Source: Acarospora socialis (Eukaryota > Ascomycota > Lecanoromycetes > Acarosporales > Acarosporaceae). From it: DNA of 64,000 bases. A model generated the notes under the pieces. The model searched no databases. It saw only the letters and a program-made list of their open reading frames with translations, and had not been told where the DNA came from. Both the position numbers and the translations under genes were made by a program. This document shows positions 38,301-62,733 of the stretch, piece after piece (position 1 is the first letter of the stretch; each line of letters starts with the position of its first letter). The stretch covers positions 2,666,001-2,730,000 of the forward strand of contig JAMYGW020000001.1 of NCBI GenBank assembly GCA_025617375.2, written 5' to 3'.

Positions 38301-38321
38301 CTTCATCAGCAATTTAATAAC

Positions 38322-41364: not shown

Positions 41365-44096
41365 CTTTGAACATTCTTATAATATAACAAGTACAATGTC
41401 TGACACACAGAAGAATGTCTCAATCTTATTCTTGAGACAAGTTCAGACAAACTTATCTCTATCATTTACTTCAGATAAAATGATGATACAATCAGCAATG
41501 ATGTCAGCTCAAGCAATACAACTATCTTTAAGTGCATCTAAGATACAGATACTGAATATCTTTGGTGAAGAATGAAAAAAACTGCAAGTCTTTGTGGTGA
41601 AGCTCAATCTATATATTGAATTCAATCAGTTAAAGTTTCAAACTGATCAAGAGAAAACATTGTTTGCAACAACTTATCTTGTGAATGCAGTCTTCAATTA
41701 AATTGACTTCAAGCTGCACAAGTTTCTGAGAAAAAAATATGAAGAATGCAACACAGACATGAAGTCTATGTTCAATGACTATGCACAGTTTAAAAAAAAA
41801 CTAAGAAAAGTCTTCAGAATAATTAACAAAGAGAGAGCAGCAAAGAAACAAGTTCATATCTTGCAACAGAGTGAATCAGCAACAGTATACATCACAGAGT
41901 TTCAGTGATTAGTGACACTTATCAGATAAAATGATAAAGCACTTATCTATCAGTACTATTGTGAGTTGAAAAAGTTCATCAAAAACAAAATAGTCTGAGC
42001 AGAACAATCAGACAATCTTCAGAAAATGATTGATTTGAGTATTAATATTAATAGTCATCAGTAAGAATGACAGATGAAACAAAAAGAATATTGAATGTCA
42101 TCTATAATAAAAGATCAAGAAGAAAGCTTCTGACTATGAATTAAGCAATATGTTTTATTAATAAGATATAGAAAAACAAATTCTATGAATCTCAATACAA
42201 TCAAGAAGCATCATCAGAAATCATAAAAGACTAGATGAACAGAGTATGAATGTCAGTCAGAGTGATTCACTAAGTCTTAGATGACACTGTGAAATGAAAT
42301 ATGAACATGTTACAATTGCAGAAAATTCAAACATCTTGCTTGAGAGTGTAACAGATCTCAGATAAAAAGAAAAAATATTGCAGTGATAGTTAAGAAGAAT
42401 ACACATATAGTGCACAACATTCTCAATTAAACAGTCTGTTACAATGACATGTGCAGAGTACACATAAGTGCAAAAGATAAAGCTGAATGATATTCTCAGA
42501 AGTCTAAAAAAAACAAAGATGAATGCAACAAATTAATCTATGAGAAAGAATTAACTATTCTTACAAAAAAAGATATCAAGAAAAAAGTTCTTAATATCAA
42601 GATCAAAGAGATCAATACTCAAGAAACTCAGATAGAAAAAAACTACAGCAATAGCATCTGACAAGCACTGAATTTGAATGCAAATCAGAAAGAAATCAAC
42701 AAATGAAAAGTTAACATGAAACTGAAAACAGCATATCAGCATTCTGAGAATCAATGTTGAGTGTTGAAGAAAGAAAAGCTTCAATTTAAGAAGCAAGAGC
42801 TTGAGCAAGAAATGCAAGCTTGAAAATGAAAAGCACAATACAAGAGTGCAAAAGAACAAAAGACATATGATTAGCTAGAAGAGCTGATGATAGCTGTTAA
42901 AGATGAATGTTTCAACAGTGACAATGCAGTATTGTTGAAATTTCTTGTTTAAAAAACAAAGAGTCACAAGATTGAGATATACTTATCTGAAGAAAACATC
43001 ACACAAAATAAAAACAGATAAATCTTCAGCAGAAAGTATATATCACTTAAATTTCTGCAAAGAGTAAGAGTCTTTGAGAGTCAGTTGCAGATGAAGTACA
43101 ATCAGTATAAATCTCAACTACATTTAAAAAGACACATTGAGTGATATAGTTTAAAGTATGCAAATCTTATAATCAAAAGAGAATCAAAGTGATTTTAAGA
43201 ACTTTGAAGACAAGTTAAATGATCAAGTAAGTCAAAAAACAAAGAGCTTTCTCAATAAGACTAAAGAATAAGAAGCTAGTGATGTCTCAAAGACAAGACA
43301 ATGATCATTGAATATAATTAAGATCACAATCAACAGACATTATATCAATGCATTGATAGATTTTGAAGCAGACAGTAATATTATGAATTGAAAGACAGTC
43401 AATATGTTAAAATTAGAGACACAGCAAGTGCACTGTTCATTCAACATACAAATGACAAACAGAGTCATTGAAAGAATTGATGAGAAAATCTGTGTGAAAG
43501 TCTCAATTCTTGAAAATTCACAAGAGATAATGTTCAATGTTATGAGATCAATTGAATACAATGCAGTGCTAGAAATACTCTGATTGTATGAAAGAAATCT
43601 GAAAATTGACTGAGTTATAAAAGAGATATATGTAATCAAAGACACATACAAGATTTCTGAATAATCAGAAATGAGCTTATTAAAGTATAAGTCATGAGAT
43701 CACAAAATACTGCTATTGGATGAAAAACAATCTAAGTGAATGTCATTGTATTCAATGAGTGAGAATCAACTCAAGAAAGTTAAAGCTTATCTTGACAAGA
43801 ATCTAAAGAGAGAATTCATAAAATCATTAAAATCACTGACAGAATATCTGATTCTGTTCATATCAAAAAAAAATGACAAGAAATGACTATATGTTGACTA
43901 CAGACAACTCAACAAGATAACTTATCAAGATAGTTATTTTCTATCATTGATAGAAGAGTTGCAAGACTGACTAAACAAGACTAAGTGATTCACAAGCTTA
44001 GATCTTAAAAACATCTATTATCAAGTCAGAATGAAAGAAGATGAAGAATGAAAAACAGCATTTTGAACATGATATGAACACTATAAATACACTGTC

Positions 44097-44345
44097 ATGT
44101 TATTTAAATTGAAAAATGCATCAGTCATCTTTCAGAGATTAATCAATGATATATTGAGAGAATATCTCAATGATTTTGTGATCACATATCTTAATAATAT
44201 TCTGATATACTCAGAAGATCTTGAAAAGCACTGCAAACATGTGCAGAAAATATTAGCAAAGCTTAATGAGAGAGTTCTGTACATAAAAAAGTTAAAAAGC
44301 AGATTTGAGATTAAGAAAGTTGAGTTTCTAAACTATGTAATTTGA
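44097..44345 (+). pseudogene. Reverse transcriptase core segment of G3
   Basis: An 82-residue open stretch with 'LKNASVIFQRLINDILREY' and the 'YLNNILIYSED' box, aligning with the G2-2 stretch at 31762-32040. It is a fragment of a broken pol. Confidence 0.87.
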
Positions 44346-46115
44346 TCTGAACAGATCAAGAAGAATTCAAAAAAGACAGAAGCAGTCAGAAACTGATTAA
44401 CACTGAAATGAATCAAGAAAGTACAGGTCTTTCTAAAGTTGATGAACTATTATTGAAAGTTTGTATCAAACTATGCAAGAATTGTGAAATCACTAATGCA
44501 TTTGACACACAAGAGTAAAAAATAACACTGAAATCAAGAACAGAAGAATGCATTTCACATATTAAAGAAAAGTTTTAGTGAAACAGCACATTTAAGAATA
44601 CTCAATTCAGCATGTGAAAAAACACTGAAAACTAATGCTTCAGATTTTGCAGTAAAAGCATGTCTATATTAGATTGAGAATGAGCAACAGAAATTCATAG
44701 TGTATCAATTTAAAAAACTATCAGAACTCAAGAAAAGATATAAGATTTATGACAAGAAACTTCTTGCAATAGTGAAAGCACTACAAGACTGAAGATCTTA
44801 TCTTGCAAAAACAAGCAAACTGATTCAGATCTATACTGATCACAAGAATTTGAGAAACTTTGCAATGATAAAGCAACTCAATCAACAACAAGTTTGTTGA
44901 ACAAAACAGTTGACAGATTATGAATTTCAGATTCATTACAAGAAAGATAATAAGAATAATAAAGCAAATGTCATGAGTAGATAATCTGATCATGAAGATA
45001 TACAGACAATATATGTCAAAATTCTGAGCAAAGACAACAAAGAAGTTCTCATGAAGAACTTAGCAGCAATGTATAAGATAAAGTAAGCTTTCTTGACAAA
45101 CAAAGAACTCATTAAAATGTGTCACTACAGCAGAGTTGATGAACATTTAGAAATCAAGTGCACTGAGAATCTAGTGCAAAGAAGATGCAATGTTAGCAAT
45201 TTTAGAAATTGAGTCATCAAAATGATCACTGTGTACAACTCATGTCAAAGAAATAAGATCAGCTGAGATAAACAGTATAACAAAGTAATGTAACTAGATG
45301 CATTAGATGTATCATGAAAGTCAGTTATCATGAACTTCATTATAAAGCTATTATTGTCAAAGAACTCAACATGAAAAGTGAAATTCAATAACATATTGAT
45401 CATAGTGAACAGATTGATCAAGTACACAATGTTCATTTCATTCAAAGAAACTGTAACAGCATCAGTATTGATGTACATCATACTGCAAGAATTGATTAGC
45501 AATCATGAGCTATTAAAAGAATTTATCACTAACAGAGACAAGCTATTTACAAGTAAGTTCTGAGAAATGCTTACAGCAGAACTCAGAATAAAACATAAGA
45601 TGTTGACAACATATTATTTACAGATGAATGAACAAAGTAAATAAATGAATCAGACAGTAAAAACATACTTGAGACACTATGTCAGCAAGAGTCAAGACAA
45701 ATGAATATGACTGTTATTGATAATACAGTTTGCATACAACAACACAAGAAATAAAATCATGAAAAAAATGTTTTTCTATGTGAACTATGACTACAACTTG
45801 AAGATATGATGAGATCTCAAAGAACATAAATCACAAAGTCAAAAAGTGATCTTAAATATCACTCAAATAAAGAAACTGCATCAAGATCTAATAAAATGAA
45901 TTGAACAGCAGACAGAATAAACAACAGAGACAAGATCATTTGAAGAAAAAGAAAGAATATATTTAAGAACAAACAACATATGAACTAAAGCAAAAAGCAA
46001 GAAGCTAAAGAACAAGAGTATTGAATCATTCAAGATCATATGAAACATTAAAGAATTAAGTTATGAGATAGACTTACTCAAGAAAATGAGAATACATCTG
46101 ATATTTCATGCATTC

Positions 46116-46129
46116 ATGTTACAGCATTG
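46116..46129. repeat. Target duplication of LINE-1, left (14 bp)
   Basis: atgttacagcattg is repeated at 53160-53173, right after the LINE tail. Confidence 0.93.
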
Positions 46130-47461
46130 GGGAAAATCAAGCTAGAACCAAAAAACCACAGAACCACAACTAAAGCAGCTATCAAAATTCTGAATAGTGC
46201 AAATTCTTTGTCTCATTCACTTCTATAAACCCTCAAAACAGCTTATCTTCATCATCAATACTGGTGGTGGGGTACCTCAATTATCATTCAGTGAAAATTT
46301 TTCGCGTACCTCCAGCCAAAACTCAAAACAACATCTCAGACATCAACATCGCCACAATCAACGCATCTTTGAAAATTCTGAATCAACAGTTTTCTTCACC
46401 TTGATCTCTTCTAAAATTCATACTATTACTGCTTTTTGATATCTTTACTGCTCACAAAGTTGTTGGACTGTTTAGTTGTACCCCTTAGTATCTAGTTTTT
46501 GAAGTTCGCAAATTTTCGCTTAATTTTTCTAGCTTGCTTGACAGAGTTTCTGCGCACCAAGCATCACCAGATACCTCAACTAAGCCTCACTCACACCAAA
46601 ACACCAAAAACACCAAAACAACCAAGAAAACACCAAAAACACCACTTTTACGCCAACTACACAGCAATTCCAGCCTATACACACCAAGCCACATCAATTC
46701 ACGCATTATACAACATACCTACATAGCTCCACCATCAAAACAAGCTATTTTATCAACAAAATCGACTACTTTTCAGCTATTTTCGCCCAAAAACCAGCGT
46801 TTCAGGTCAAATTTCTAAGCGTTACAGGCTGAATTACACCAAATCGCTCAATTCCAGCAACTGCACGCAGTTTCCGCAAAAACTAGCCGCAAAATAGCCA
46901 TTTCTTGACGGATTTAGCTGGAATTTGAGCATTTCTTCTGTCAATTGATTAGCGTTTTGCATGCAGAAAGAACCTACCAGTGAAGACATACCCTACACTA
47001 GAAGCATCTCACAAAGACCTAGTGAAGGGTATAAGCAGGTAGCTATTTTCTAGCCCTACCTGCTGGTAAAAGCTCAGACTGGCAAACAACGTCGTCTGAG
47101 TAGTTGGGATATAAATACGAGACTCCACGTGGAAATCTTGCCCTAGACGCATCTGCCCCAAGATCTAGTGGTTGAGTGACTTATAGTATAGTCTTGCTTA
47201 TAGTAGAGCTGGTAAAAGCCTATTGTAGAGTTTATCTACTCTAGGTGAATTGGGATATTAAGCAACATCTGGATTAGGCAATTGGGTACAGCCTATTCTA
47301 GATGAAATAAGGATCCAAAGCTTCTATAATCTAGAACCTCAGGAAAATCTAGTTTTTACCTTTAAAAACTAGATAATTACTGCTAGACATAGACCTTCTG
47401 GACCTGGATTTGGATAGGATTTTGGATTTGGACAGGACGGACCCCAAAAACACCTCATATC
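46130..47461 (+). promoter_or_regulatory. 5' UTR / internal promoter region of LINE-1
   Basis: 1332 bp before ORF1. It is the only stretch in the window with frequent CpG (for example tttttcgcgtacctccagcc near 46290). It has an acaccaaaa-rich part at about 46585-46650 and a hairpin (agcaggtag at 47034-47042 pairing with ctacctgct at 47056-47064). LINEs use promoters inside the 5' UTR (family knowledge); the exact start site is not visible. Confidence 0.6.
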
Positions 47462-49051
47462 ATGACTTTTGCACTGGATTCTAGCAACTTCATGCAAGAT
47501 TTCAACCTAGAAAACCCAAAAACACCTACAAAACAACAAAAATCACCAAAAACAGCACTTCCACAACTCTTTATGAGTTCACCAGACCTGTTGGGATCAC
47601 AAATCACCATGAAACCTTCTCAAAAGACTATTCTAAAGTCTAAAAAGAGAAGAGCCATTGCCAGTCCAGTGCTAGAAGCTATTTCTTCTGATGAAGAATC
47701 AAATCAGCATGAAACTCATCATGCAAACTGCACAAACCTACACCCAAAAAGTCAAAATGGTGACAAACTACTTCAACAAGCCAGAAACTACCTCAAGCAA
47801 GCTATTCAGCAATTCACAAACCCCATAGTTCAACAAGAACTAGAAACTAGCATCAAGACACTGGATCAAGCAAGACAAAATGCAAATCTAGACTCACTCA
47901 AACAGTCAGATGAAGCATTTCATCAGAAATTAGATGTTCAACAACAACTAGACAGCTTCAAAGATGAAGTCAACATCAAACTAGACAAAATTCTTCACAC
48001 AATGTCTAAAACAAAGTCAGAAACCACAGAGAAACCAGCATTTGTCTTTCAGACAAACAAAACAAACCCTATCAACTTTGTACAGACAAACAAAACCAGC
48101 TTTGGACAGCCAACATCAACAAAAACAGTGAAATCAGCAACATATGCATCAATTGCAAGCAGCAAAGATCAAAATGCTCAAAACTCATGGACAACTGTTC
48201 AAAAAAAAGCACCAAAGTCAAAAGTAGTGGATAAACCCATTACTTTCAGAGAAAGACGTCTAGTTATAAAGTCAAAAACACCCACAACTACTATCAATGC
48301 CATAGACATGCGCAACAAAATCAACAACACACTTAAAACAGCAAAAATAGACAATTTGCTGGTTTCCACAGTTGCTATTTCACAATCCAAAGCTAGTATA
48401 GTGCTCACAACCAGTGAAGGCACAGCAGAAGACTTGCTAAAACATCAACAAATCTGAAATTCATCATCTGAATTCATAGAAATCAAAAAGGATGAAAAGT
48501 GGTACAAAATAGTAGCACATGGAATTCCCACAGCTATTTTCAACGGCAAAGAAGACATGCAACTAGTCAAAGATGAAGTAGAAATCTTCAACAAAGATAT
48601 CAAACTAGCTATTTTACCACACTGACTTACTTCAGAAGAAGCCAGACAGGAAAAACAGCATGCATCTATTGTTTTGACAGTCAAATCAGAACAAGAAGCT
48701 CAAAAAGCACTCAGAAACAGACTGATAATTGCTGGAACATCAGTTAGAACTGCAGTCTACAACACTTGCAAACCAACAGATCAATGCAGAAAGTGTCAAA
48801 AGTTTGGACATACTCAAAAAGTATGCAAAAATCAAGACACATGTCAATTCTGTGCGGGAAACCACAATACTAGAGAACATGGCTGTTTCCTTTGTCCCAC
48901 ACAGTCAAAAGGAACCACTTGTGCACATATAGTCTATAAATGCAGCAATTGTGGTGAGAAACATCAAGCAAATAGTGCAGAATGCAGTGTTTTCAAAGCA
49001 CTACAGTCTATTTCTTCAACAGCAGATCCACTATCTATGAAAATGTCATGA
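47462..49051 (+). CDS. LINE-1 ORF1, nucleic-acid-binding Gag-like protein
   Basis: 529 codons from ATG at 47462 to TGA at 49049. Order: a Pro/Lys/Thr-rich N-terminus, a Gln-rich helical part (about 100-170), a Ser/Thr-rich linker, a basic part ('FRERRLVIKSK' near 260), an RNA-recognition-like middle, and three Cys/His knuckles near the C-terminus: C-x2-C-x4-H-x4-C at 442-455, C-x2-C-x3-H near 461, and C-x2-C-x3-H-x6-C at 494-508. Such proteins coat LINE RNA. Two in-frame TGA codons (codons 332 and 388; 48455 and 48623) interrupt an otherwise continuous frame. Both sit where the flanking sequence would read well with Trp, so TGG-to-TGA is the likely origin. As it stands the ORF would stop after 331 residues. 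Confidence 0.88.
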
Positions 49052-52000
49052 ATAACACAACAAATTCATCACAAATCACCATTCTACAACACAACTGCGC
49101 AAGATCTATGAATGTCATGTACTCATGTCTGAATTCAGCTACAAAAACTGCAGACATAGTTCTTCTTCAAGAACCATGGGTTGCAAGAGACAACAAAACC
49201 ACTATTTCACATTCATCTTTTACTAGTTTGATACCCACATCTAATCTAGATATTAGACCTAGAACTATGGCATTTGTGTCTAAAACTAAACAAGATTTAG
49301 TGTGTATACCAAGACCTGACTTGTCAAAAGACTCAGATTTGCAAATACTCAGTATTTCAGCAAATGGAATTTCTAGTATACTGTTACTTAACATATACAA
49401 TGAAAAGTCACAGCAAATCAACAATGATCAATGGACCATAGACAGATGTTTAACAGCAATTCAACTACCACAAAGAGCTACTATCTGTGGGGATTTTAAT
49501 GCACATCATGCATGGTGGAATTCATCAATAGAAAACTCTATAAGAGCTACTTCTTTGATAAACTGGCTGAAAATTCACAACTGTGAGCTATTAAATACAC
49601 CAGACATAAACACCTATACACATCACTCAGAAAATGCCACATCAGTGATTGATTTGACTTTTGCAACACCCTTACTTTGCAATTTCATCAGAAATTGGCA
49701 AGTAAATCAAGACATGGAGTCTGAATCAGACCATGAAGTTATTCAGTTTCAAATAACTGCAAATGAGTCTGAATGGGTTGAAAGTCCACTGAGTGCATCA
49801 TACAATATAGACAAAGCAGACTGGGTTAAATTTGCAGAAACTCTGCAAATAAACTCAGTACAAACCAGTGTTCAAATTCAAAGCTTAATGCAACATCTAT
49901 CAGATCAAAATCTAGAAGAAATGGCTATTTCTCTCAGAAATCTGATAGCAAATGCAGCAGATCAGCATATACCAAAGAGAAAACCTTGTTCAAAAGCCAA
50001 AGTATGGTGGTCTGAATCATTATCAGTACTTAGAACTGAAATGAGTGGTTTTAGAAGATACTGGAAACATCACAAATCACAAGAAAACTGAAATCAATTC
50101 AGAAATGCAAGAAATAGATACTTTCACGCAATTCAGAAAGCCAAACATACCTCATGGACTACTTTTCTGCAAGGTGCAGCTGGAAAAGATGTTTTCACAG
50201 TATATCATTACACTAAACCACGAAAAATAGAGAAAACACCTCCTATAAAGCATGAAAACAAAGTAGGACTCACATTTAAAGACAAATGTGACTTGTTTCT
50301 TGAAGCTATGTTTCCAAAACCACCTCAAACAAGTTCAGTTGAGCTAGAATGTGATAATAGTCTCACAAAACCATGGTTTTCAGTCATTTCTAAGGAAATA
50401 AAACAAGCTATTATGACTTCATCAACAAAAAAAGCACCTGGGCCAGATGGATTGTCCTTTTTGATAATTCAACATGCATATCAAGCTATATCTGAGTTAT
50501 TTCACACTGTTTATTCAGTTTTAATAAATCAAGGTTATCATCCAGTATGCTGGCGTCAAGGAACTGGTGCAATTCTAAGAAAAGAAGGCAAAGCAGACTA
50601 TTCAATACCCAAAGCATATAGGCCAATCACTCTACTAAATTGCTTGGGCAAAATATCTGAAAAGATAATGGCAACAAGACTTTCCTATTGGGCTGAAACC
50701 ACAAACTTGCTATATCATGAGCAAATGGGCGGTAGAAAGCAAAGATCAGCTGTGGATGCAGCTATGTGTTTAACACATGACATTCAACAAGCAATCAACA
50801 ACAACAAAGTCTTGACAGCTTTATTCTTGGATGTTAAGAGTGCATTTAACTATGTGTCTTTAAATCAACTGCTAAAAGTCATGAAAAGACTACATTTACC
50901 ACAAACTGTACTAAAATGGGTGCAATGCTTTCTTACAAATAGAACAATTGCTCTAGCTTTTGATGGTGAAAAAAATCACCCACAAAGTGTCAATTCTGGA
51001 ATTCCACAAGGATCACCTATATCACCAATGCTATTTTTGATCTATATGCGATTTCTATTCACAAAAATCAACAATAAACACACTCAACTAAAGCTATCAA
51101 GCTATATTGATGATGTGGCTATTATTGTGGAAGAAAAAACAGCTGCAGACAACAGCAAAACACTAGAATCAGTCACAAAAACTGCATTTCAATGGGCTGA
51201 AGAAAATGCAGTTATATTTGATGACAGCAAGTCAGAACTCATCCATTTTCAGAAAGGAAATCAAGCTATATCAACAGTAAAACTATCAAATAACACTGTT
51301 ATACATCCTTCTAAAGTTGTACGCTGGCTAGGTGTTTGGTTTGACACTAAAATGTCTTTTAAGACACATGTGCAAAAGAAAATAGCTTCTGCAACTAGAA
51401 CATTGCATTTACTGCATAGACTGATGAATTCTGAATGGGGTTTATCAACATCAGCTGGAAAACAGCTGTACACAGCCTGCATCACATCTATAAGTGACTA
51501 TGGAAGCCCAGTATGGTGGAAACAACAAAAGAATTTTGAAAAGCTGTTTCAAAAACTTCAAAATTCAGCAACTAGAAAAATTCTAGGTGCATTTAGGTCT
51601 TCACCATCAGCTGCTATGGAGCTAGAATCAGCTATATTACCACCCAGATTTAGACTTGATCAAAAAACAGAGCTATATGCTTTAAGAATAGCTACTTTGT
51701 CAGAAAATCATCCAATTAGACAAAGAACTCCATACACCTACCCACCAGGACTTGGAACTGGATGTGATATTGATGAAAATCATTATCTTGACTGGAATCA
51801 ACATCCAAACTCTCTCATTAAGAAGAAACACCCAACTCAGTTGATTAAAGTGCTATATAGCATTTGCAAATATCTACCAGAAACACTAAATTTGGAGGTT
51901 TCAACTCAAAATGAGTTATGCTGTGCACCTTGGAGTGTTTCACCAAACATAGACATTCAAATCAGCAAATCTGACAAAAAACTAGCTACTTTGGAACATC

Positions 52001-52965
52001 TAAAGAGACTAGAAACACTTTTCTCTAAGGAAATCAAGTTTAAAAATGCTGTTTTGTACACAGATGGGTCAAAACTAGATGAGAATCTAGGTGCAGGTCT
52101 TTGCTACATGTATAAAGATATTATACATCAACAATCTTGGAATCTAGGAACCACCATGGAAGTCTATGATGCTGAATTGTTTGGAATTTCACAGTCTTTG
52201 AAGTTAAGTCTCAAAGAAATCATGAAATATCAAAGAATCAAAGACATATGGATCTTTTCAGACAATCAAGCAGCTATACAAAGAATTCAAACTACAAACC
52301 AAGGATCTGGACAGCAGCTAGCTATTAAATGTCAAGAAACTCTTCAAAAACTCATAGATTATGAAGTTACACCTCATATTCATTGGGTTCCTGGACATGA
52401 GGACATTAAAGGCAATGAAATAGCAGATGAAGCTGCAAAATCAGGTGCAAAGCAGTCAATTTCACCAGATATTGATAGATTTACATCTATTAGCTATATC
52501 AAACACAAAATCAAGGCCAAAGCACTGGAAAACTGGACCACTCACTGGAAAAAGACAACCCAAGAAAGATACTATGCTCAGTTTGATCAAACACCTAGTT
52601 TTCACATCAAAGAAGATCTGAAAAGTGCAGACAGACTTTCATTTGCTACTTTTACACAAATGAAACTAGATCATAACTATTTCAAAGCATATCTGCATAG
52701 ATTACCAGACTATAATAGCAAGAAATGCAATGGTGCATGCAACAAAGATCAAACCCCAGAGCATTTGTTGACAGCCTGTCAATATAACAAAAAGGAGCAA
52801 ACTGAGCTGAAAAATCAGCTCAGAAACATCAATTTGCCATATACAGCAAAGGTGCTGTTTACTACCAAGGAAGGAATCAAAGCTACTTTGCTGTTTTTGA
52901 AGAAAACCAAAGTAGCTACTAGAAAATGGTTATTAGAAGAAGTTGAGAATGAAGATGAGATTTAG
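49048..52965 (+). CDS. LINE-1 ORF2, endonuclease / reverse transcriptase / RNase H
   Basis: 1305 codons; the ATG at 49048 overlaps the ORF1 stop as ATGA. Domains: APE-type endonuclease, residues about 10-235 (HNCARS, catalytic Glu42 in LLQEPW, GDFN from 148, SDH 227-229); reverse transcriptase, about 430-760 (KKAPGPDG from 462, YRPITLLN, FLDVKSAF, GIPQGSP from 651, catalytic YIDD 686-689); RNase H, about 1000-1130 (Asp1006 in TDGS, Glu1043, Asp1072, His1117, Asp1127); a C-terminal Cys/His group (CNGAC...H...C, about 1230-1250). One in-frame TGA at codon 348 (50089) lies between endonuclease and RT, again in a TGG-like context. Otherwise all catalytic residues are present. It makes cDNA at a nicked target and inserts the element. 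Confidence 0.93.
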
Positions 52966-53159
52966 AAAAGAAGAAAGATATTGATTGACAATCAGCATCA
53001 GATTGACTGAACAGAAGTGATCAAAAAGTATTCAGATTGATTATTCACATGTACAAGATTTTGAGTTTTGTTTTGTGTCTACATCTTTCACTATATGTCT
53101 ATTAACTGCCATAGCTTTTATAGCTGCATGCATAGAATGAAGAATAAATAAATAAATAA
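52966..53159 (+). other. LINE-1 3' UTR and AATA-repeat tail
   Basis: About 175 bp followed by aataaataaataaa. Identical in layout to LINE-2 (62734-62930) and LINE-3 (21636-21824). The AATA-type repeat replaces a poly(A) tail. Confidence 0.92.
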
Positions 53160-53394
53160 ATGTTACAGCATTGTGATCAGTTCATATCACTTTAAATCAT
53201 CAAAATGTCTGTCAAACTCAAAGAAGAATATGAAGTTGAGAACATTCTAGAAAAGAGAATGATTAGTGAGAAAGTTCACTATCTCATTAAATGAAAAGAT
53301 TATGACATCTCAGAAAATATCTGAAAATTCAAAGAGAATCTCAAGAACTGCACAAGAATACTTCAACATTTTGAGAAAAAGCAAAAATAGAATT

Positions 53395-53712
53395 TCAGAA
53401 GGACAGAGACATCAAATTAATAATTTGTTGCATATTTAAAGAATTTTTGTTCTTCATCTCATCATTATCATCAGCAAGCTCTTGAGCAAGATACTTGACT
53501 TTTGTGTCAATACAAGCTTCTGATTGTTTTAAGATCTTATGTAATTGTACAATTTTAATTAGCAGTTTAAACAATTGCTCATCAAGAGCTTCAGATAACT
53601 CAGATTTAATCTTGAAGCAAGTGAACTTCAAAGAATTAAGTGTAAGATCAATGCAGAAATGATTATGATGAGTACACTTGACATACTTTGAGTGCTCAGT
53701 ACTATCAGACAT
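53395..53712 (-). CDS. Antisense small ORF of family G3 (105 residues)
   Basis: Open reading of 105 codons on the strand opposite to pol, its ATG 205 bp from the 3' LTR. It aligns with the 112-residue ORF of G2-2: a Cys-containing start (VKC...FCIDL...CF), then ELSEALDEQL, a Leu-rich helix with 'LHKILKQSEACIDTK', and an Asp/Asn-rich tail. Residues kept between the two include CIDL, LKQSE, IDTK and the acidic tail, although the elements are different subfamilies. It lies in an LTR-element fossil but is itself uninterrupted. Function unknown. Confidence 0.6.
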   Translation of the reverse strand: MSDSTEHSKYVKCTHHNHFCIDLTLNSLKFTCFKIKSELSEALDEQLFKLLIKIVQLHKILKQSEACIDTKVKYLAQELADDNDEMKNKNSLNMQQIINLMSLSF

Positions 53713-53917
53713 GATGATACAAGAAAAATCAATCTTAAGACAGTGATTACAAGAAAAAAGAACAGAAACTTCTTTTCAGATTATGATGACTGCAAGATGA
53801 AGATAATTTTTGAATTTGTCTTTCATGATTATGAAACTGATGAGTGAACATCATTCAACTATATACTCTCACTTAAATAAACACTAAGAAACTAGATGTC
53901 TGAGAAGAAAAAAATGA

Positions 53918-54235
53918 TGTAACAATCATATCTAGATGAGTCAGAGCAGATCTGAAACTATGTGAAAGAATGAGACATTTAGACATGAAACAACAACATG
54001 AAAGACATTTTATTGTGATCATGTGTCAAAAACACATCAAGACAAGAACACATCTGTTGTGCAGATGTGTCAGGTTCTATATAGATAGAATCATTTTTCT
54101 TATGAAAACAATCATGTTCAACTTAAATAATCATCTAAGAATTAAAGACCAGAATCATTTCAGACCAGCTGTTATATCAATAAGCACAAATTCTTAGCTC
54201 TACATATCTGAGAAAGCTTAGATTAGAATGTTACA
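53918..54235 (+). repeat. 3' LTR of G3 (318 bp)
   Basis: 318 bp, paired with 41047-41364, followed by CATGT (54236-54240). Confidence 0.93.
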
Positions 54236-54952
54236 CATGTGTTGAGTGATAAAAGCTGAATTTATCATGAATTTAGCTTGAGTCAGACTCATCAGTATCA
54301 CATATGTGTGTATGTGTGTATGAGATGTCATTACTGTGATATTTTGAGCAACAGTGATTTGCTTGATGAAGAATTTGGTGATGTGATTGATGAAGAACTT
54401 AATGATGTAATTGGTAAAGAATTTGACAACAGCTATATCAGTATAAAGTGACATAGATATAGTGATCTAAATAAGTGTCTGAATAAACTGCATTGAGATT
54501 ATTGATATAGAAGACTGACATAAAGATTTGATGAAAGACTCAGACATAGATGTATGCTCTATAGACTTGAAATCATGAGATTGAAGATTAAAATGACAAA
54601 AGATCTTGTCAACTGCTTGTTTCACAATAGTTTTGATGTCATCATCACTTAGATAGAACAGCATTGATGTGAACTTAAAAGACTCACAAATAAATGTGAT
54701 TTGCATAATATCTTGAGCATAACTGATTGGCATACCTGCTTGCAAAGATGTGATGTAGATATTGTAGTAGTCATCATAGTACAGATTGTATGTGAAGTGA
54801 CTGTTAATGACATAAATATTGTACTGACTGTTGTTATTGTCATAAAGATCATAATAAAGATAAATTTAATGAGTCTAGTGAAAGAGTCAAATGCTGAGAT
54901 GAATAAGAAGATTTAAATAAAGATATAAAATTAAACTGTTGATGCTATCATT

Positions 54953-55169
54953 TGTCAGAAGTGCAATACTCACAATAAGAAGTTAAGTTCTCAGTAGAGA
55001 TCTATTGAGCTCAATGTCATATAGTATTTAGTATGTAATGAGAAGTCATGACTATCAATGTTAAGTGTTATGAATGAAGTCTATTATTATTCTACTCTAG
55101 CTACTATGCAGAAGTTATATAAGATTTAAGTGACAGCACAAGCAAATAGACTAGAGTATAATCATAACA
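54953..55169 (-). repeat. LTR of element X, right (217 bp)
   Basis: Paired with 40248-40464 and followed by TTTAT (55170-55174). Confidence 0.92.
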
Positions 55170-55174
55170 TTTAT

Positions 55175-55900
55175 GAAATTCTTGTTGCTGCATAACTTCT
55201 GTTGATATGAATCTTTAAATTATGACTACTTTATAAATTTACTTTATTCTGTGAATTCACATTCTTATGAATCTTCAAATTACAGTGATTATACTATGAC
55301 ACACTCATCTTGTTCTTACAAAAACTGTGACTATAACTTACATCAAGATGACAGATCACAATCTTCATCATAACAATCACTTTGTTTACATTGAGTGTCT
55401 CATAAGCATGAATCTCATGAGCACAGATTTTGTGCACATAAAAATTGAGCATATTCACAGTGTTATGAATAGAGCATAGTCTCACTGTTTTAATCTCATT
55501 TGTTGAATGTGACTCATCAGATCACTTTGCAAGCTTATTGTTGTTATGAACTTATAACTAGTTGCTAGATATAAAAGACATCTCTATAGATATTTAGACA
55601 GAATTTTTCATAGATAGATTTTTAGCAATTACATCTTTCATTCACTTGTATAATGATTCTAATAATTTGATAGCACTAACTGTACAAATTATCAAGTCTA
55701 CAATCATTGATTTGTGTCTCAAAATCAGTCATCTTCATATGACATCATCAGTCTGATTTTATCTCACTAAAATCATCAGATCTTCAATGTATTGAGTTTG
55801 TCAATTTTATCAAAACTGTTTTCACTGTTTATCATTTACCTGATCATTACATCTTATCTGTTTAATATCAACAACAATGATCTTGTTAACTGACATCACT
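55175..55900. other. Unassigned stretch between X and the Y gag
   Basis: AT-rich sequence continuous with 38911-40247 before X inserted. No motif recognised. It may hold the 5' leader or a decayed LTR of element Y, but no repeat partner is inside the window to prove it. Confidence 0.3.
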
Positions 55901-56907
55901 GTGCTTCACTTTCTGTATTTATTATTAACATTACTTCACTTTTGTTTGTATTTATCTGAGCTCTCTATCACAAACTCATCTTCTACACAGTCTTCTCACA
56001 ACTGTGATTTGTCAATTTGACAAAGTCTTCAACAGACATTCAGATCAGCTCTAGCTCAACTGCTTTAAGTTAAGATCTATTTCATTTATTAAATTGTTGT
56101 GTGTTGATCATTTATCAGCTTAAACAGTTTGAATCAATTAATCATGCTTACACTTCATTAATATTAAATGATGTCATCAGACTAGCTCACAGCATCATTA
56201 CTTTATTTTCTACACTCATTGAGTATCAGTCTGTTAATATGTTAGACTCTCAACAAACTCATGTGAATTCTACTCAGTCAGATTTAAATTACTTTATTAA
56301 CTGATCACTTATCAAAAGCAGTTTCATCAGAACTATTCATCATTTCAAGAACAATTCAACATCAGTATTGAATCATTCAGTCTTTTTAATGTGAATCTCA
56401 TTTTAATCTACATTCAACAACATTGAACAGTCTGATTCCTTCAAGACTGAATGAAGATTTTGTCAATTCTTACTTTTCTCACTGAATCAGTCTGACAAAC
56501 TCAAATCAACAGTGTCATCACTGCATGAATCAATGCTTCTAGAAACTCAATCTCATATATTCACTTTTGCTGACAAAAGCATACTGTGTGATCTATCTCT
56601 ATCACAAGAAATGATCAATAACAACAATAATGAAAGTCATCATGACAGTAACTGAAATACATCACTGATCAATTCAGTCTTTTTTGATGCTTAAATGCAG
56701 ATACTTTGTGAGTTAATAGCACAAGCAAAGACAGATGAACAGATCAAGAATTATGTTAAGACTGTTAACTCAGAATTTCATCATCTCAAAGCAGACTTAT
56801 CTCATTGCTCTAAACAGTATTCAGATAGAAGAGATCTATCTTAATGACATCAATATGATTCAGATTCTGACAACTCAGATGATTCAGATGAATCAGTTTC
56901 AAATATA

Positions 56908-57159
56908 TTGAACACATTCTGTAAACACTGTCTGACAGATAAGAATACTCAATTTTGTTCTGAGAAGATAGAATTCTTTAATTCACATCTCAATACTAAG
57001 AACTATGATGCTGACAACATCATTGACATCAGTGAAAAGATCTACTTTCAAGACATACATCTCTTTATCAATTCATTTAAAGATGTGACTCATATCAAGA
57101 CAGATGAAGTGATACATCAAAATCTGAATAAATATCTTTGCAGCATAGTTCAGAACTGA
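56908..57159 (+). pseudogene. Gag segment of Y
   Basis: An 83-residue open stretch ('FQDIHLFINSFKDVTHIKTD' and similar), part of the gag capsid region by position, upstream of the Gln/Tyr-rich stretch and the finger. It is part of a broken element. Confidence 0.55.
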
Positions 57160-58203
57160 TATATTGATTAGTTATTCATCATTAAGCATGAGTATATACA
57201 GAAAGATCAAGGTGTCAAATGATGAAAAAAGATGTTATTTTGTTGCTTTAAACAGACTCAGTTTAATGCAATGAAGACTCTTAAAACAGAGCATTATATC
57301 ATTCAGAATGTTCATAATAATCATGAACTGTTGAACTTTGTTCTTAATGTTATTCATCATGTGAAAAATACCAATATGATTGATATATCTGCTCAGCTTA
57401 CATAAGTATGAAACTGTTTAAATACTAGTCTTCACAAAGACATACATTGTTTTACTAGTTTAATCACAGTATTGTTGTTCATTGAGAATATGAAGAATAT
57501 GAAGAAAGTATGATTCAATAAGTATAGTTGTCATAACTTTACAGTCAGACCATCATCTGTGCAGTTAACTCAGCAGCAACAGTGTTGACAACAAGATAAC
57601 AATTTCAACAATAATTGTTCATTTCATTCATACAGTCAATTTCAAGAACCTCAATTTTCTTATCAACTTTATCAGAATAATGCTTACAATTATTCATTTC
57701 AGTCATATCAGTTATATCAACTCTATTCAGCACATTCATACAATATCAACATAAACATATCTTCATCTTCACAGCTGCAGATCTTCTATCATCAGTCTTT
57801 GCAAATTATCTTTGACAATGTCAACTACTCATAAAATGAGTACACTGAACATAATTAAGATAGTCAGAATAATCAACATTCTTTATATCAATTATGTTTT
57901 TTTTATCAATCTAATTGTTCATATCAAACAACTCAACCTCAGTCAGTCTATCATGACAAATTAATTCTGTTCAATCAATCTGATGAAGACTTCAACAAAG
58001 AAGAACATAACAATGAATATATCAGCAAATATAACTATAATTATGAAGAAAATGTCTATCAGAAAAATAATAAAGAGAAGAAGCAGATCAATCATGATGA
58101 TACTGTTGCAACAATTTTAACATCAGTCTCAGATCTGTTCAAAGATACCTATTATATTGATATCTTTCATGTACAAACTCAGATCACAACATATACTTAT
58201 TAT

Positions 58204-58443
58204 ATGTGCAAGATCATCTTTCAGTTCAATAATAAACTACATCAACATGTTTGTTCAACTCACAGAAAATTCAAGACAAAGATCAAAAAAATCAGTTCTA
58301 TCATCTTAAACACTGATTTTGAGTCAGCACTGATATCTATTTCAGCAATAGTTCATATCAATATTCATCACATGACTGCAGAAATCATCAAATCTGATGC
58401 AATTAATGTCATTGAGAAATCTGATTGTGATTTTTGCAACTGA
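58204..58443 (+). pseudogene. C2H2-type finger segment of Y
   Basis: A 79-residue open stretch beginning with a finger-like motif ('CKIIFQFNNKLHQHVCSTH') just before the protease. The finger occupies the place of the usual CCHC knuckle. A similar motif closes the gag-like interior of element X. Confidence 0.65.
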
Positions 58444-58671
58444 CATTACATGACAATATTATTTTGATTTAAGCTTAATGAAGACTTCATCAAATCTGTC
58501 TGCCTTGATACTAACTGTATTATGTCACTGATTGATCAAATCTTTCTTTAAAAACATCTATCTGATCTTCTTGTTTAAAAGACTAAGAGTAAAATAATTG
58601 TGTAAGAAATAAACAGTCAAACTCATGAATATCAGAAGTATGTTTGTCTGAGTTTATATTTATTAGACACA

Positions 58672-58875
58672 TTGAATGAAAAGATCATTATTGTTTATAT
58701 AATGTGTAATGTTCATCTTGTCAATAATCTTCAAGTCAATCTTCTTATTAATATAAATATAATAAAGTCAGAACAAATAAGTACAGATATTTCATCACAA
58801 AAGATTATTATAGAAGAATGTTGCAACATATTAATAGATCTGAACATAACATCAGAAAAGAATGACTCTGTTTGA
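58672..58875 (+). pseudogene. Protease-end segment of Y
   Basis: A 67-residue open stretch with 'HLVNNLQVNLLININIIKSE', the typical end of gypsy aspartic proteases where a Leu-Leu-Ile-Gly type motif is followed by a helix. It is part of a broken pol. Confidence 0.6.
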
Positions 58876-59003
58876 TGAGTTGTTTGAGTTTTGACAAAAA
58901 TTGTGATGATATCTCAGTCAGTGCATCTAGTTTCTGTCAAGACAGATTGACAATTCTTGTCTGATTATTATGATCAAGTTAGAACAGACTTAAAGCAAAC
59001 TGA

Positions 59004-59317
59004 TGCATATGCATGAGAAGTATATATTCAGAAAATATCTAGGCAGCAGTCATGTGACATCTCAATATGCTCAATGATGAGCTTGATGAGCAAGCTCAAC
59101 AAGTTGCATGAATGAGCTGTCTCAATGAGCTCAACAGTGAGATCAGCAAGCAGACTCAGTATATAGTCACAATCATTTTTCTTATAAAAAGAATCATGTT
59201 CAACTTAAATAATCATTTAAGAGTTAAAGACCAGAACCATTTCAGACCAGTTATTATATCAATAAGCACAAACTCTTAGCTCTACATACTCAAGAAAGCT
59301 CAGATTAAAATATTACA
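59004..59317 (+). repeat. Solo LTR related to G3
   Basis: The right half (from about 59170) matches the G3 LTR closely; the left half is different sequence with agctca-rich short repeats. About 314 bp, with flanks CTGA at 59000-59003 and TTGA at 59318-59321 (duplication of four or five bases with one transition). Y reading resumes across the site. A single LTR is what remains after LTR-LTR recombination. Confidence 0.7.
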
Positions 59318-59334
59318 TTGATGATTAAGATCTG

Positions 59335-59652
59335 ATGTTTTATCTCACATATTTAGACATCTATAATCATGTAATTGATGTCAACTTAGTCTATATTCAC
59401 ATTCAAAATGATGAATCTACCAATCTGATAATTTCAAGACATGCTTGTCTGAAAATCATTGTTGAATATGAAGAGAAAGACTGTTACATCAACAATATTG
59501 AGAATCTCAAATTAGTTATTCTGCTCAGACACATTCTGAAGTACATTGATATGTTAGAAATCTGTTTAGTTAATGAAGTCACAATATATGATGACAAACT
59601 CAACAAAGTTGTCATTCTTACTGCAGTTGTGAAGACTTACTCAAATCTATAA
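59335..59652 (+). pseudogene. Linker segment between protease and RT of Y
   Basis: A 105-residue open stretch with 'LIISRHACLKIIVEYEEKDC' and similar, matching the region in which gypsy polyproteins of this type pass from protease to reverse transcriptase. It is part of a broken pol. Confidence 0.55.
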
Positions 59653-60513
59653 CATGACTGTAGAAAAACAGTGAATATATTTGAGTCAGATTATCTTTAG
59701 ATCTCACTTAAGCAAGACTGAAAGAACACAAAATTGTTAAAATAGATTTATTCACTTGATGATGAGACATATTGACTAGTTGATGAGAAATTTGATAAAT
59801 TACACACACAAGAACAAATGAATTGATCAACTTAATCAACATCATTTAACTTTTCTGTTTTTATCATCTGAAAGATTGTGATACAGTTTGATGACATAGC
59901 AAAATGAAAAGAACAAGTTGTTGTGAATATATGTGATCTCAATTGCATATCTCAGTTCAATATCTACTCACTGTCATTACAGATCAATATCACATCAATA
60001 GTATGAGACTGTCACTACATATTCATCATAGATTGTGTCTTCTTTTTCTATCAATGACTGATAAATTCAGCAGATAGATTCAAGTTTACAGTAGTCTTGC
60101 ACTGCAGTCAGAAACACTTTAATGTCACTGTTATGAGATATTACAATTCATCATTATATGTACAACAGCAAATGAATTGAATTCTTTGAGTCTTTCACAC
60201 TTTCACATGAAACTATGTCAACAATATAGTTGTCTTTTTCAAGACACTAGATGAGCATTTTCACCATTTGCACCAAGTTTTCAATCTATTTCAAAATCTC
60301 AGTAAAAGTCTAAAATCTAAGAAATTCTACTTAGACTATTTGATGATTACTCTTCTAAATCAGTGAGTAAATGCTTTAGATCTATTCATCTCAGAAGAAA
60401 AAATCAAGATACTGACAGACTTGCAGTTTCTCACTACACTCAAGACACTTAAAATCTATCTTGATCTTACTGACTGACTACACTTCTATATTTTCTATTA
60501 TGTTTAAATCAGT

Positions 60514-60702
60514 ATGCTGTTGCAAGCTTGCAAGACAGCATTGTTGAAGACTTCATCAGTCTTCAAAGAGAATACTCAAAAACAGCACATCAGTCATATA
60601 TTTCTCAACAAATCTAGTTCTGAAGAACAGTATGCATTTGAGATTTTACAGAATTTATTTGTGACATCTATCTTTTTGACTCATTTTGATTCTAGTTGCT
60701 GA
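60514..60702 (+). pseudogene. RT-to-RNase H junction segment of Y
   Basis: A 62-residue open stretch ending 'ILQNLFVTSIFLTHFDSS', the family landmark just before the first catalytic Asp of RNase H. It is part of a broken pol. Confidence 0.75.
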
Positions 60703-62052
60703 CTCTATATTGATGTGAATGCATTTAAGCAATATGATTTTGACATTGTCATCTATCATGTTGAGAAAGATTCACAAAATACTACAAAATGATTACATCA
60801 TAAGATTCAGTCTATTCTGTTTCTTAACAAGTTATTAATGTCAGCTGAATGAAATTACTGGTTGATGAAAATGAAAACAGTCAAATTAGTATGAGTAATG
60901 CATAAAACAAAACATCTAATCAAATTGACACCTAGAAGCATCATAGTTTTTATGAATTACTCAGTAACAACATCAATTGCTCATCAAACACATTTAACTA
61001 TCACTGTCAGTATCAACAAATTGAATCTATGACTTGTATGAGTCTCACAATATCTCAGTCAGTTTGATCTAAACATACAGCATTGTTCTGAGAAGATTCA
61101 TCTGATTTCAGATGCATTATCAAGATTATTAAATGATATGAGTATTAAAACAGAAGATAAAACTGATACTCTCAATGATCTAACTTTAAAATCTTATCAT
61201 ATCACACTGATAAAATTGATAGATGATTTCAAGCAACAGCTAAAGAATGCATACAAAAACAATTCACAATGAAAACAAATACTGAATATAATCAAGCTGA
61301 TAAAGCTATCTTGTTGACATGTCACAGACACAGTTCATGACAAAGATATCATGAATAAACTAATCAAATTACACTTCACTTATTGAAATGACCTGATCTA
61401 CTATATCAATGATGTTGATGGTTGCAAATATCTATGCATATCAGTTCATTTTGAAAAGAATATCTTTGAACTTACTCACAAACAACAACATCATAAGAAA
61501 TTTCATAAAATCTATGATCACATATCTGTCTCACTATTCATGCAACATCTAACTCAACATCTAAAGACCTACATCTTTCATTGCTCAGAATGCAATGTCA
61601 ATCAAATGAAATAACATAGTTCATATGAATCATTACAGTTTATATCAACATCTGCAATATCTTTTCACACAATTACAATGAATTTTATTCTTATCTTATC
61701 ATCAGTCAGTTCAGAAGATTTCAATAACATATTTACAGTCATTAATAAATTCACAAAACAGATGTTACTTCTATCTGACAAATCTATCTATACAGTTTCT
61801 GATTAAACAGATGTGTTACTTTCAGATCTTATAGAATATAAATGAAACATATTACATCAGATCATTAGTGATCAAGATTGAAAGTTTCTCTCATTATTTT
61901 AACACATCATTTTTGAGCATTTAGAAATCAAGTTACTCACTTCAACAGCATATCATTCTCAAACAGATGATCAGTTCAAACAAATAAATCAAACAGTCAA
62001 AATCATTCTGCATTACTATTTTATCTCAAATTCTGACAAAGACTTCATCACA

Positions 62053-62325
62053 GTGATTTCATACATTCAAGATCATCTCAACAACAGTCAAAATGTCTTC
62101 ACAGATTATGCATCTAACAAATTGACTTATGACTTCTGCATTAACAACACTCTTAATACATTGTTATTGATAAACTTGTCATCTGAAAATTACACTCACA
62201 TTTATTATATTCATCACAAAGAAGCAGAACAGACTATTGTCTTTGTGAATGTTATCTTCAAATTATACTATGATGCAAGTCATCAGTCTATTGTCATGAA
62301 ATCAGACTTGATGATATATCTATGA
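62053..62325 (+). pseudogene. Integrase C-terminal core segment of Y
   Basis: A 90-residue open stretch after the YHSQTD landmark (61950-61980), with 'VISYIQDHLNNSQNVFTDYA' matching the integrase region that precedes the C-terminal domain. It is part of a broken pol. Confidence 0.7.
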
Positions 62326-62733
62326 CTATTTCATAAATATATCATATCAGATCTCACAAACCACAAGCTGTCAAATCAGCAAGTTGATTCATTTCAGATC
62401 TTAGAATGAGTCAGTTAACTGACTTATTGACTTAAATTGTCACTCACTATGCAGATTCATTTCATCATGTTGATTACACAGTTAGAATCAGTTTTCAAAA
62501 ACAATTCATATAATCATCAAATGAATATCAATTCTTCACTCATCAAAAACAAAGTTACAGTCAACAACATCAAAACAGCACTCATTTACAAAATTAAACA
62601 GCTTTTGAATAAGCACACTACACATTATGAATGTAGTTGATCTACAATTGAGTATCTCATTAAGTGAAAGAAATACAATCATAATCATAATGTATAATAT
62701 GAAGTTAAGAATCTAGCTAATGTCAAGAAACTG

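What the first reader, a model, noticed from the sequence alone, without database searches (positions are those of the whole stretch)
52541..53030. Strand-biased G-to-A change in GpG context in LINE-1, read against LINE-2 and LINE-3
Seen directly: over about 630 bp, LINE-1 differs from LINE-2 at seven positions, all G in LINE-2 and A in LINE-1. In every case the G lies in a GG dinucleotide, mostly its second G, and I saw no C-to-T difference. LINE-3 agrees with LINE-2 where they overlap. On the other strand this is CpC to TpC. Classic fungal RIP prefers CpA; APOBEC3G-type editing prefers the 3' C of CC. This pattern is neither. The three in-frame TGA codons of LINE-1 fit the same change (TGG to TGA).
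Basis: partly seen in the sequence, partly recalled or inferred. Interest (0 to 1): 0.75.

Follow-up and report, generated by a model that had tools for sequence, protein, structure and literature searches.

The report
RIP-like decay erasing CC and CG
In this fungal genome, probably a lichen fungus, old repeated DNA has been hypermutated until almost no C is followed by C or G on either strand, a rare variant of the fungal anti-transposon mutation process that the usual detection index misses here.

Summary
The seven G-to-A differences are real: LINE-1 and LINE-2 differ at 7 of 1267 bases, all G to A, six at the second G of GG. The GG (CpC) context holds; the strand bias does not: 8 full-length copies carry 113 C>T and 93 G>A private changes, without same-strand runs.

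Rates per site are CpC 112/367, CpG 14/68, CpA 46/1188, CpT 34/946. Around the LINE the process has gone to completion: 9750 bp (11904-21653) hold no CC, GG or CG, against 539 expected. Two decayed 6-kb copies differ by 560 transitions and no transversion, too fast for ordinary methylcytosine decay. Of 30 genomic samples 27 look normal.

I read this as RIP-like hypermutation of C before C or G, sparing CpA and CpT. DIM-2-, RID- and DNMT5-like genes are present; the nearest named relative is Pleopsidium (Acarosporales). RIPper cut-offs flag 0 of 127 windows. A review mentions CpG and CpC in Coccidioides, so this is a new variant of a known kind. Enzyme, trigger and timing are inferred.

The parts
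46130..53159 (+). LINE-1: 7.03-kb non-LTR retrotransposon with a 3' AAATAAAT-type tail, lightly mutated
   Evidence: Six other fetched copies match over about 7.0 kb at 96.3-99.6%; L049 matches in two pieces (91% and 98%) and L045 in fragments. RT and RNase H Pfam hits.
46116..46129 (.). 5' copy of the 14-bp target-site duplication of LINE-1
   Evidence: Exact match to 53160-53173.
53160..53173 (.). 3' copy of the 14-bp target-site duplication of LINE-1
   Evidence: Exact match to 46116-46129.
47462..48457 (+). LINE ORF1-like frame, ended by an in-frame TGA at 48455 (TGG in 4 of 8 copies)
48982..50091 (+). LINE endonuclease frame, ended by TGA at 50089 (TGG in 1 of 8 copies)
   Evidence: Exo_endo_phos_2 E 5.4e-21
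50092..52965 (+). LINE reverse transcriptase and RNase H frame
   Evidence: RVT_1 E 5.9e-35, RNase_H E 3.5e-11 for 50293-52962; open frame 50092-52962
52565..53002 (+). Span of the seven G-to-A differences of LINE-1 from LINE-2
62734..64000 (-). LINE-2, 3' part, cut by the window end
   Evidence: 99% identical to LINE-1 over 1267 bases
21620..21828 (+). LINE-3, 3' tail fragment
   Evidence: 99% identical
1..46115 (.). Decayed DNA, depleted of CC and GG and without any CG
   Evidence: First CG of the window is at 46303; bins; 110 of 127 one-kb windows of the whole window have CpS O/E below 0.15.
11904..21653 (.). 9750 bp with no CC, GG or CG (539 expected from base composition)
53174..62733 (.). 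Decayed DNA between LINE-1 and LINE-2
6152..12187 (+). Decayed repeat, copy 1 of pair I1
   Evidence: 560 differences from copy 2, all transitions
28864..34899 (-). Decayed repeat, copy 2 of pair I1

Best explanation
The differences are hits of a RIP-like (repeat-induced point mutation) genome defence that changes C to T, on either strand, wherever the next base is C or G (CpS), and largely spares CpA and CpT. Young repeats such as this LINE carry scattered hits; older DNA around it has been driven close to, or to, an end state with no CC, GG or CG, which leaves almost no glycine, proline or tryptophan codons and no CGN codons in its frames. Shown here: the mutation type, the context, both strands, compartments with sharp edges, saturation, and a speed far above ordinary mutation. 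Inferred: that being repeated is the trigger (about half of the decayed DNA has a second copy inside the window; the rest was not tested), that a cytosine methyltransferase of the RID/DIM-2 group drives it, and that it happens in the sexual phase. A possible structural basis, untested: in this fungus's DIM-2 the residue matching Neurospora N1170, reported to contact the +1 site on the non-target strand, is Arg, which could read the G of a C:G pair in either orientation.
For: Private changes in 8 full-length LINE copies: CpC 112/367 sites, CpG 14/68, CpA 46/1188, CpT 34/946; CpS against CpW odds ratio 10.5, p = 2e-51; CpC and CpG do not differ (p = 0.11), nor CpA and CpT (p = 0.82). Leaving out flanking columns or the LINE's first 670 bases changes little. 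On a tree of 30 fragments CpC sites are hit repeatedly: 61 of 82 columns more than once, against 8 of 37 CpA, 3 of 25 CpT and 2 of 4 CpG. Saturated DNA: 0 of 539 expected CpS dinucleotides in 9750 bp. Putting genic DNA of the same genome through a saturating CpS model gives GC 0.262 to 0.353, against 0.288 observed, and the two closest trinucleotide spectra of seven models (KL 0.047 and 0.152; CpC alone 0.379, CpG alone 0.515, CpA 3.65). Decayed pair I1: 560 of 560 differences are transitions; 112 CA/TG swaps, against 5 AC/GT swaps and about 13 expected by chance, the mark of the same CpG lost on either strand; 34 of 38 remaining CpC in one copy are TpC in the other. Estimated CpG decay at least 2e4 times the transversion rate. 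27 of 30 genomic samples look normal, and one edge passes from 17 CpS per 100 bp to 0-1 within 200 bp. 29207 of 55675 decayed bases lie in repeat pairs inside the window. DIM-2-, RID- and DNMT5-like genes are present.
Against: No same-strand runs (57 of 117 neighbours, null 65.2, p = 0.94; swaps in I1 p = 0.16); I recall that Neurospora RIP of one cross tends to hit one strand in stretches. Context is opposite to the usual RIP order. No cross, no methylation data, no expression data. CpW sites are also hit at a low rate (80 of 2134), and 103 of the 309 private changes are not C>T or G>A. Decayed pairs other than I1 and I5 do hold transversions (31, 4 and 6). Past 46800 CpG is hit less than CpC (8/48 against 105/328), and partly decayed DNA suggests CpG and CpC are lost at different speeds. 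Gene conversion could add to the shared states on the LINE tree. The Arg in the DIM-2 loop is His or Thr in 3 of the 11 sequences of its group.
Confidence: 0.78

Rival explanations
1. Slow decay of methylated cytosine: CpG and CpC in heterochromatin are methylated and lost by ordinary deamination, without an active mutator.
For: A DNMT5-like gene is present; hits show no strand runs; CpG is nearly absent in partly decayed DNA such as L073 (1 CG).
Against: In the I1 pair about 214 ancestral CpG decayed independently in both copies with 0 transversions in 12072 bases, a ratio of at least 2e4 (an estimate that assumes equal strand odds); ordinary methylcytosine deamination is, as I recall, roughly ten-fold above background.
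Confidence: 0.12
2. Two processes: CpG lost through DNMT5-type CpG methylation, CpC lost through a separate RIP enzyme. This overlaps with the best explanation, which does not need a single enzyme.
For: A DNMT5-like gene is present; partly decayed stretches lack CpG while keeping CC and GG (L073: CG O/E 0.01, CC 0.34, GG 0.74; L057:1-400 CG 0, CC 0.61, GG 0.53); the young LINE itself is CpG-poor; past 46800 CpG is hit less than CpC.
Against: Over the whole LINE CpC and CpG rates do not differ (0.305 and 0.206, p = 0.11), and both reach zero in the same tract.
Confidence: 0.25
3. Strand-biased editing of LINE intermediates, as by an APOBEC-like deaminase or an error of reverse transcription.
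For: 7 of 7 differences between LINE-1 and LINE-2 are G to A; L051 and L048 lean to one strand (24 against 9, 9 against 2).
Against: The five most-hit copies are hit on both strands, no runs, non-LINE DNA shows the same end state, and the hit C is the 5' C of CC: CCA second C is hit in 8 of 210, ACC in 55 of 157.
Confidence: 0.02
4. Ultraviolet damage (lichens are sun-exposed) at pyrimidine pairs.
For: One GG to AA double change; a small excess of Y-C-W over R-C-W hits, 53/1028 against 27/1106, p = 0.0013.
Against: ACC and GCC are hit more than TCC (0.35 and 0.33 against 0.23), CpT is spared and ACG/GCG are hit; 27 of 30 genomic samples look normal.
Confidence: 0.01
5. Sequencing or assembly artefact at methylated cytosines.
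For: The reads and the assembly method cannot be inspected here.
Against: The same sites recur in many copies on several contigs, with hits on both strands, and a read error cannot empty 9750 bp of every CC, GG and CG.
Confidence: 0.02

Closest known systems
RIP of Neurospora crassa (RID-dependent, with DIM-2)
   Same: C to T on both strands, low-GC compartments, genic samples spared; RID- and DIM-2-like genes present.
   Different: The Neurospora order is CpA>CpT>CpG>CpC (quoted in PMC5496416, passage). Here CpC and CpG are the targets and CpA and CpT are largely spared.
Repeat-induced mutation in Coccidioides
   Different: Another order (Onygenales). I saw only the review sentence; a first guess at the original paper (PMC6879716) holds none of the terms and a second is not held. 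Strength and saturation cannot be compared.
CpG-type decay in Tuber, Microbotryum and rusts
   Same: C to T in repeats, CpG lost.
   Different: The survey of 10 genomes reports CpA, CpT and CpG signatures; the term CpC does not occur (PMC4352252, abstract and passages).
RIP-like SNPs of Rhizoctonia solani AG8
   Same: A table gives C<->T SNPs in CpC every 214 bp, denser than CpG (370 bp) (PMC4014442, passages).
   Different: Basidiomycete heterokaryon; genes and repeats alike; the authors describe a CpG bias.
RIP compartments of the lichen fungus Cladonia rangiformis
   Same: Sharply bounded low-GC repeat compartments, one large one on most chromosomes taken as centromere, RID and DIM-2 homologues (PMC12542154, section 6 read).
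   Different: Cladonia repeats fall to about 16% GC; here decayed 2-kb bins hold 25-32% GC, as expected if CpA and CpT are spared. The terms dinucleotide, CpG and CpC were not found in that text.

Membership tests
RIP (repeat-induced point mutation) | Only C:G to T:A changes, on both strands | tested here: met
   560 of 560 differences in pair I1 are transitions; 113 C>T and 93 G>A private LINE changes, beside 103 of other kinds; pairs I2, I4 and I6 hold 31, 4 and 6 transversions.
RIP (repeat-induced point mutation) | Confined to repeated DNA, single-copy genes spared | tested here: inconclusive
   27 of 30 samples have CpS O/E 0.82-1.02, the others are L035, L057 and L037, the last being the LINE; one of the 27, L041, ends in about 600 bp of depleted DNA. 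29207 of 55675 decayed window bases lie in repeat pairs of the window; the rest, L035 and L057 were not tested for copies elsewhere, and samples were not annotated for genes.
RIP (repeat-induced point mutation) | Preference for CpA (classical context) | tested here: not met
   CpA 46/1188 against CpC 112/367; RIPper cut-offs met in 0 of 127 windows. Context varies among species, so this is typical rather than defining.
RIP (repeat-induced point mutation) | RID/Masc1-type methyltransferase homologue | tested here: met
   L032: DNA_methylase hits on two exons, PPCQ motif and homologues incl. Pleopsidium flavum. Filing it under RID rests on recall, not on a RID reference sequence.
RIP (repeat-induced point mutation) | Occurs premeiotically, triggered by duplication | not testable with these tools
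   Needs crosses.
RIP (repeat-induced point mutation) | Strand-wise runs of hits from one event (recalled, typical) | tested here: not met
   No same-strand runs in 6 LINE copies or in 4 decayed pairs; many rounds could hide them.
APOBEC3G-type editing | 3' C of CC hit, one strand | tested here: not met
   5' C is hit, both strands.

The most novel reading that the evidence does not exclude
One cytosine methyltransferase of this fungal lineage, DIM-2 or RID, has changed its reading of the +1 base pair so that RIP fires at C before a C:G pair in either orientation (CpC and CpG alike) and hardly before A or T. In the DIM-2 candidate the change would lie in the target-recognition loop, where an Arg replaces Neurospora N1170. 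The query and its 10 closest DIM-2 relatives also share the Neurospora-like R1175, which the other 110 of 121 aligned sequences lack, though the N1170 position is Arg in only 8 of these 11.
Probability: 0.3. Interest if true: 0.8.

Novelty: new variant of a known kind. Interest (0 to 1): 0.62.

Why it matters
RIP is widely scored with CpA-based indices, whose published cut-offs flag none of this window, so genomes with this variant could be scored as lacking RIP. A clean two-class context (CpS hit, CpW spared) gives a simple test of which enzyme sets RIP context, still an open point: the DIM2 structure paper leaves its sequence preference to later work (PMC11315935, passages). It also changes what RIP does to proteins. 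CpA RIP makes stops from CAA and CAG; this variant makes stops mainly from TGG (and CGA) and otherwise removes Gly, Pro and Trp: 11, 15 and 4 of 9523 residues in stop-to-stop frames of 60 or more codons, all six frames, of the decayed DNA.

Tried and rejected
Strand-run tests on 6 LINE copies and on CA/TG swaps of 4 decayed pairs gave nothing. Five decayed open frames against Pfam gave no match over a curated cut-off, and the integrase-like frame at 61903-62322 (so named from a recalled motif) none in PDB. A length-limited protein search with it found three relatives (7 candidates), which hold 0-1 Gly and 0-1 Pro each; their DNA was not seen and one holds 4 Trp, so I draw no conclusion on other species. 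tblastn of the LINE proteins at E 1e-3 found only LINE-1 and LINE-2 in the window. Rfam on 8 sources gave one snoRNA, in L041. SET-domain genes were listed (15 matches) and not followed. Species identification by 18S failed because the tool did not complete. Singletons alone gave a weaker CpC excess (12 CpC, 20 CpA, 10 CpT, 1 CpG; CpC against CpA+CpT p = 0.009): most CpC sites are hit in several copies, and two copies were present twice, which hides their private changes. The tree count uses costs that favour C>T and G>A, so its directions lean that way. A regular-expression search for the DIM-2 loop missed 107 of 121 rows and was replaced by an alignment.

Full report
WHAT WAS CHECKED. LINE-1 and LINE-2 share 1267 ungapped bases with 7 differences, all G to A in LINE-1, six of them at the second G of GG and one at the first G of a GG that became AA. 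The context is far from chance (6 or more of 7 in CpC type, p = 3.6e-5). The three in-frame TGA codons of LINE-1 exist, and among 8 full-length copies 4, 3 and 1 read TGG there. The seven sites are not a LINE-1 event: at six of them A is also found in 8 to 18 of the 33 other aligned fragments (L005_2 and L013_2 re-read copies also present as L026_1 and L018_1).

STRAND. In 34 LINE fragments (pieces of at least 1190 bases from 30 fetched loci; shorter pieces left out) 99 columns are A/G and 88 are C/T. In 8 full-length copies (LINE-1 and L046-L052; L045, which matches only in pieces, was left out) private changes are 113 C>T and 93 G>A (p = 0.19). Two copies lean (L051 24 against 9, L048 9 against 2), but for CpS hits no copy departs from the ratio of available sites (lowest p 0.13 over the full alignment). 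Neighbouring CpS hits are not on the same strand more than chance (57 of 117 pooled, null 65.2, p = 0.94; lowest p of six copies 0.43). In the region compared LINE-2 has 37 GG and 22 CC, so six of six CpC hits on GG is unremarkable (p = 0.06). The strand claim is not supported.

CONTEXT. Private changes per site in the full-length copies: CpC 112/367, CpG 14/68, CpA 46/1188, CpT 34/946; 103 further private changes are of other kinds. CpS exceeds CpW by an odds ratio of 10.5 (p = 2e-51); CpC and CpG do not differ (p = 0.11), nor CpA and CpT. A rerun without flanking columns gives 111/366, 14/71, 46/1170, 34/931 and 92 others; past 46800 it gives CpC 105/328 and CpG 8/48. The 5' base matters little (ACC 0.35, GCC 0.33, CCC 0.28, TCC 0.23). 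On a tree of 30 fragments (over 1600 bases) CpC takes 226 steps, CpA 49, CpT 28, CpG 8, and 61 of 82 CpC columns are hit more than once (costs favour C>T and G>A).

THE SURROUNDINGS. In the 2-kb bins outside the LINE copies CpG O/E is 0.00, CC and GG O/E are mostly below 0.15, CA O/E is 1.34-1.80 and TA 0.47-0.79, so CpA has not been emptied. From 11904 to 21653 no CC, GG or CG occurs in 9750 bp; 539 are expected. Of 30 samples taken at set positions of the genome (10 of 5 kb, 20 of 2 kb), 27 have CpS O/E 0.82-1.02 and GC 47-60%; L035 and L057 are depleted (0.00, 0.18) and L037 (0.36) proved to be the LINE. One of the 27, L041, ends in about 600 bp with few CpS. The edge at about C1:496300 falls from 17 CpS per 100 bp to 0-1 within 200 bp. 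Of 30 LINE loci 15 hold a flank of 250 bp or more; 14 of 15 have CpG O/E of 0.09 or less, and 12 have CC+GG O/E of 0.17 or less; the exceptions are L010 (0.47), L014 (0.73; CpG 0.35) and L018 (0.39). About half of the decayed window DNA (29207 of 55675 bases) lies in repeat pairs found inside the window; copies elsewhere were not sought. LINE-1 is bounded by a 14-bp target-site duplication, and the decayed state reaches that point on both sides (1 CpS in the 1700 bp before, 8 in the 1700 bp after), so the LINE most likely landed in DNA already decayed.

MODEL. Genic DNA of the same genome (8 samples of 5 kb) was passed through saturating C>T in different contexts. CpS gives GC 0.262 if all hits fall at once and 0.353 if hits fall one by one and protect neighbours; observed 0.288. 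Trinucleotide divergence: CpS 0.047 and 0.152; CpC only 0.379; CpG only 0.515; CpR 3.54; CpA 3.65; all C 7.39; untreated 0.789.

SPEED. The decayed pair 6152-12187 and 28864-34899 differs at 560 of 6036 bases, all transitions. CA/TG swaps number 112, against 5 AC/GT swaps and about 13 expected by chance: the same ancestral CpG lost on one strand in one copy and on the other strand in the other. About 214 CpG therefore decayed independently, none survive, and no transversion occurred in 12072 bases: a ratio of at least about 2e4 (an estimate that assumes equal strand odds). Other pairs: I2 462 transitions of 493, I4 181 of 185, I5 98 of 98, I6 127 of 133. This argues for an active mutator.

MACHINERY AND HOST. 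PF00145 finds four matches that belong to three genes. L031 matches the Neurospora DIM-2 structures (9bap, E 1.3e-191; named in PMC11315935) with a BAH hit just under its cut-off. L033 pieces match 7r76, deposited as Rad8, which I recall to be Cryptococcus Dnmt5. L032 is a Masc1/RID-like gene, by recall, continuous over a presumed intron. The nearest named relatives are Pleopsidium flavum proteins, 62% for DIM-2 and 51% for RID, of Acarosporales, Lecanoromycetes; the species itself was not identified.

DIM-2 LOOP. In the phmmer alignment Neurospora R1145, D1173 and R1175 are kept and N1170 is Arg; numbering uses an offset of 2 that I inferred from the residues named in the paper. Among 121 DIM-2 sequences (query plus the best 120 of 506 hits) the R1175 position is Arg in 11, which are the query and its 10 closest relatives; the N1170 position is Arg in 11, of which 8 are in that group, the other 3 of the group having His, His and Thr. 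The paper says N1170 and R1145 contact the +1 site on the non-target strand. Arg there could read the guanine of a C:G pair either way round. This is a lead, not a test.

AGAINST KNOWN SYSTEMS. RIP order in Neurospora is CpA>CpT>CpG>CpC; in Trichoderma reesei CpA and CpG lead and CpC is last (PMC5496416, passage). A survey of 10 genomes lists CpA, CpT and CpG signatures (PMC4352252, abstract and passages). CpC loss is not unheard of: Stagonospora nodorum repeats are depleted of CpC among others, with CpA dominant (PMC2621366, passages); a Rhizoctonia solani table has CpC SNPs denser than CpG (PMC4014442, passages); and one review sentence reports CpG and CpC for Coccidioides repeats (PMC9409882). 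The original Coccidioides data were not seen, and Clutterbuck's 2011 survey I know only from citations. Ten searches of an open-access library listed no other paper that I could see to name CpC as a main RIP target; most listed papers were not opened. The RIPper cut-offs (PMC6714961, passages) flag 0 of 127 windows here.

VERDICT. The context observation is right and is the edge of something larger; the strand reading is wrong. Best account: RIP-like hypermutation with CpS target in a probable Acarosporales lichen fungus. What sets the context, whether copy number is the trigger and when it acts remain to be tested.

Noticed in passing
G000: C1 2.65-2.80M, C2 1.47-1.50M, C3 568-587k, C4 1.99-2.00M, C5 1.53-1.60M, C6 653-689k, C7 1.32-1.36M, C8 205-242k, C9 1.25-1.26M, C10 185-268k, C11 927-932k, C12 143-152k, C14 10-89k: The LINE matches listed by two searches (43 and 40 rows, lower bounds) fall in one cluster per contig on 13 contigs, which looks like LINE-marked centromeres.
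   Followed up: partly
L031 (C3:855595), DIM-2-like protein, loop LFPTITTGIRPQDGR: The target-recognition loop of DIM-2 in the query and its 10 closest relatives differs from the other 110 of 121 sequences.
   Followed up: partly
L073 (C2:398001-400000) and L057:1-400: Partly decayed DNA with 1 and 0 CG but many CC and GG left, as if CpG goes first.
   Followed up: no
window 46130-53159: The young LINE is itself CpG-poor (36 CG in 7 kb, 25 of them in the first 1.3 kb), as if adapted to the mutator.
   Followed up: no
window 61903-62322 (+): Integrase-like decayed frame (recalled motif); the three relatives found hold 0-1 Gly and 0-1 Pro in 122-239 residues.
   Followed up: partly
L014:1-400 (C1:2762185-2762584): About 400 bp of near-normal composition (14-24 CpS per 100 bp) inside the decayed C1 cluster, origin unknown.
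   Followed up: no
window 5179-5568: Direct repeats at a 39-bp step in decayed DNA; seven overlapping 156-nt copies, six of them 62-74% identical to the reference copy.
   Followed up: no
LINE copies: Among the rare CpA/CpT hits, those with a 5' pyrimidine are twice as common (53/1028 against 27/1106, p = 0.0013).
   Followed up: no
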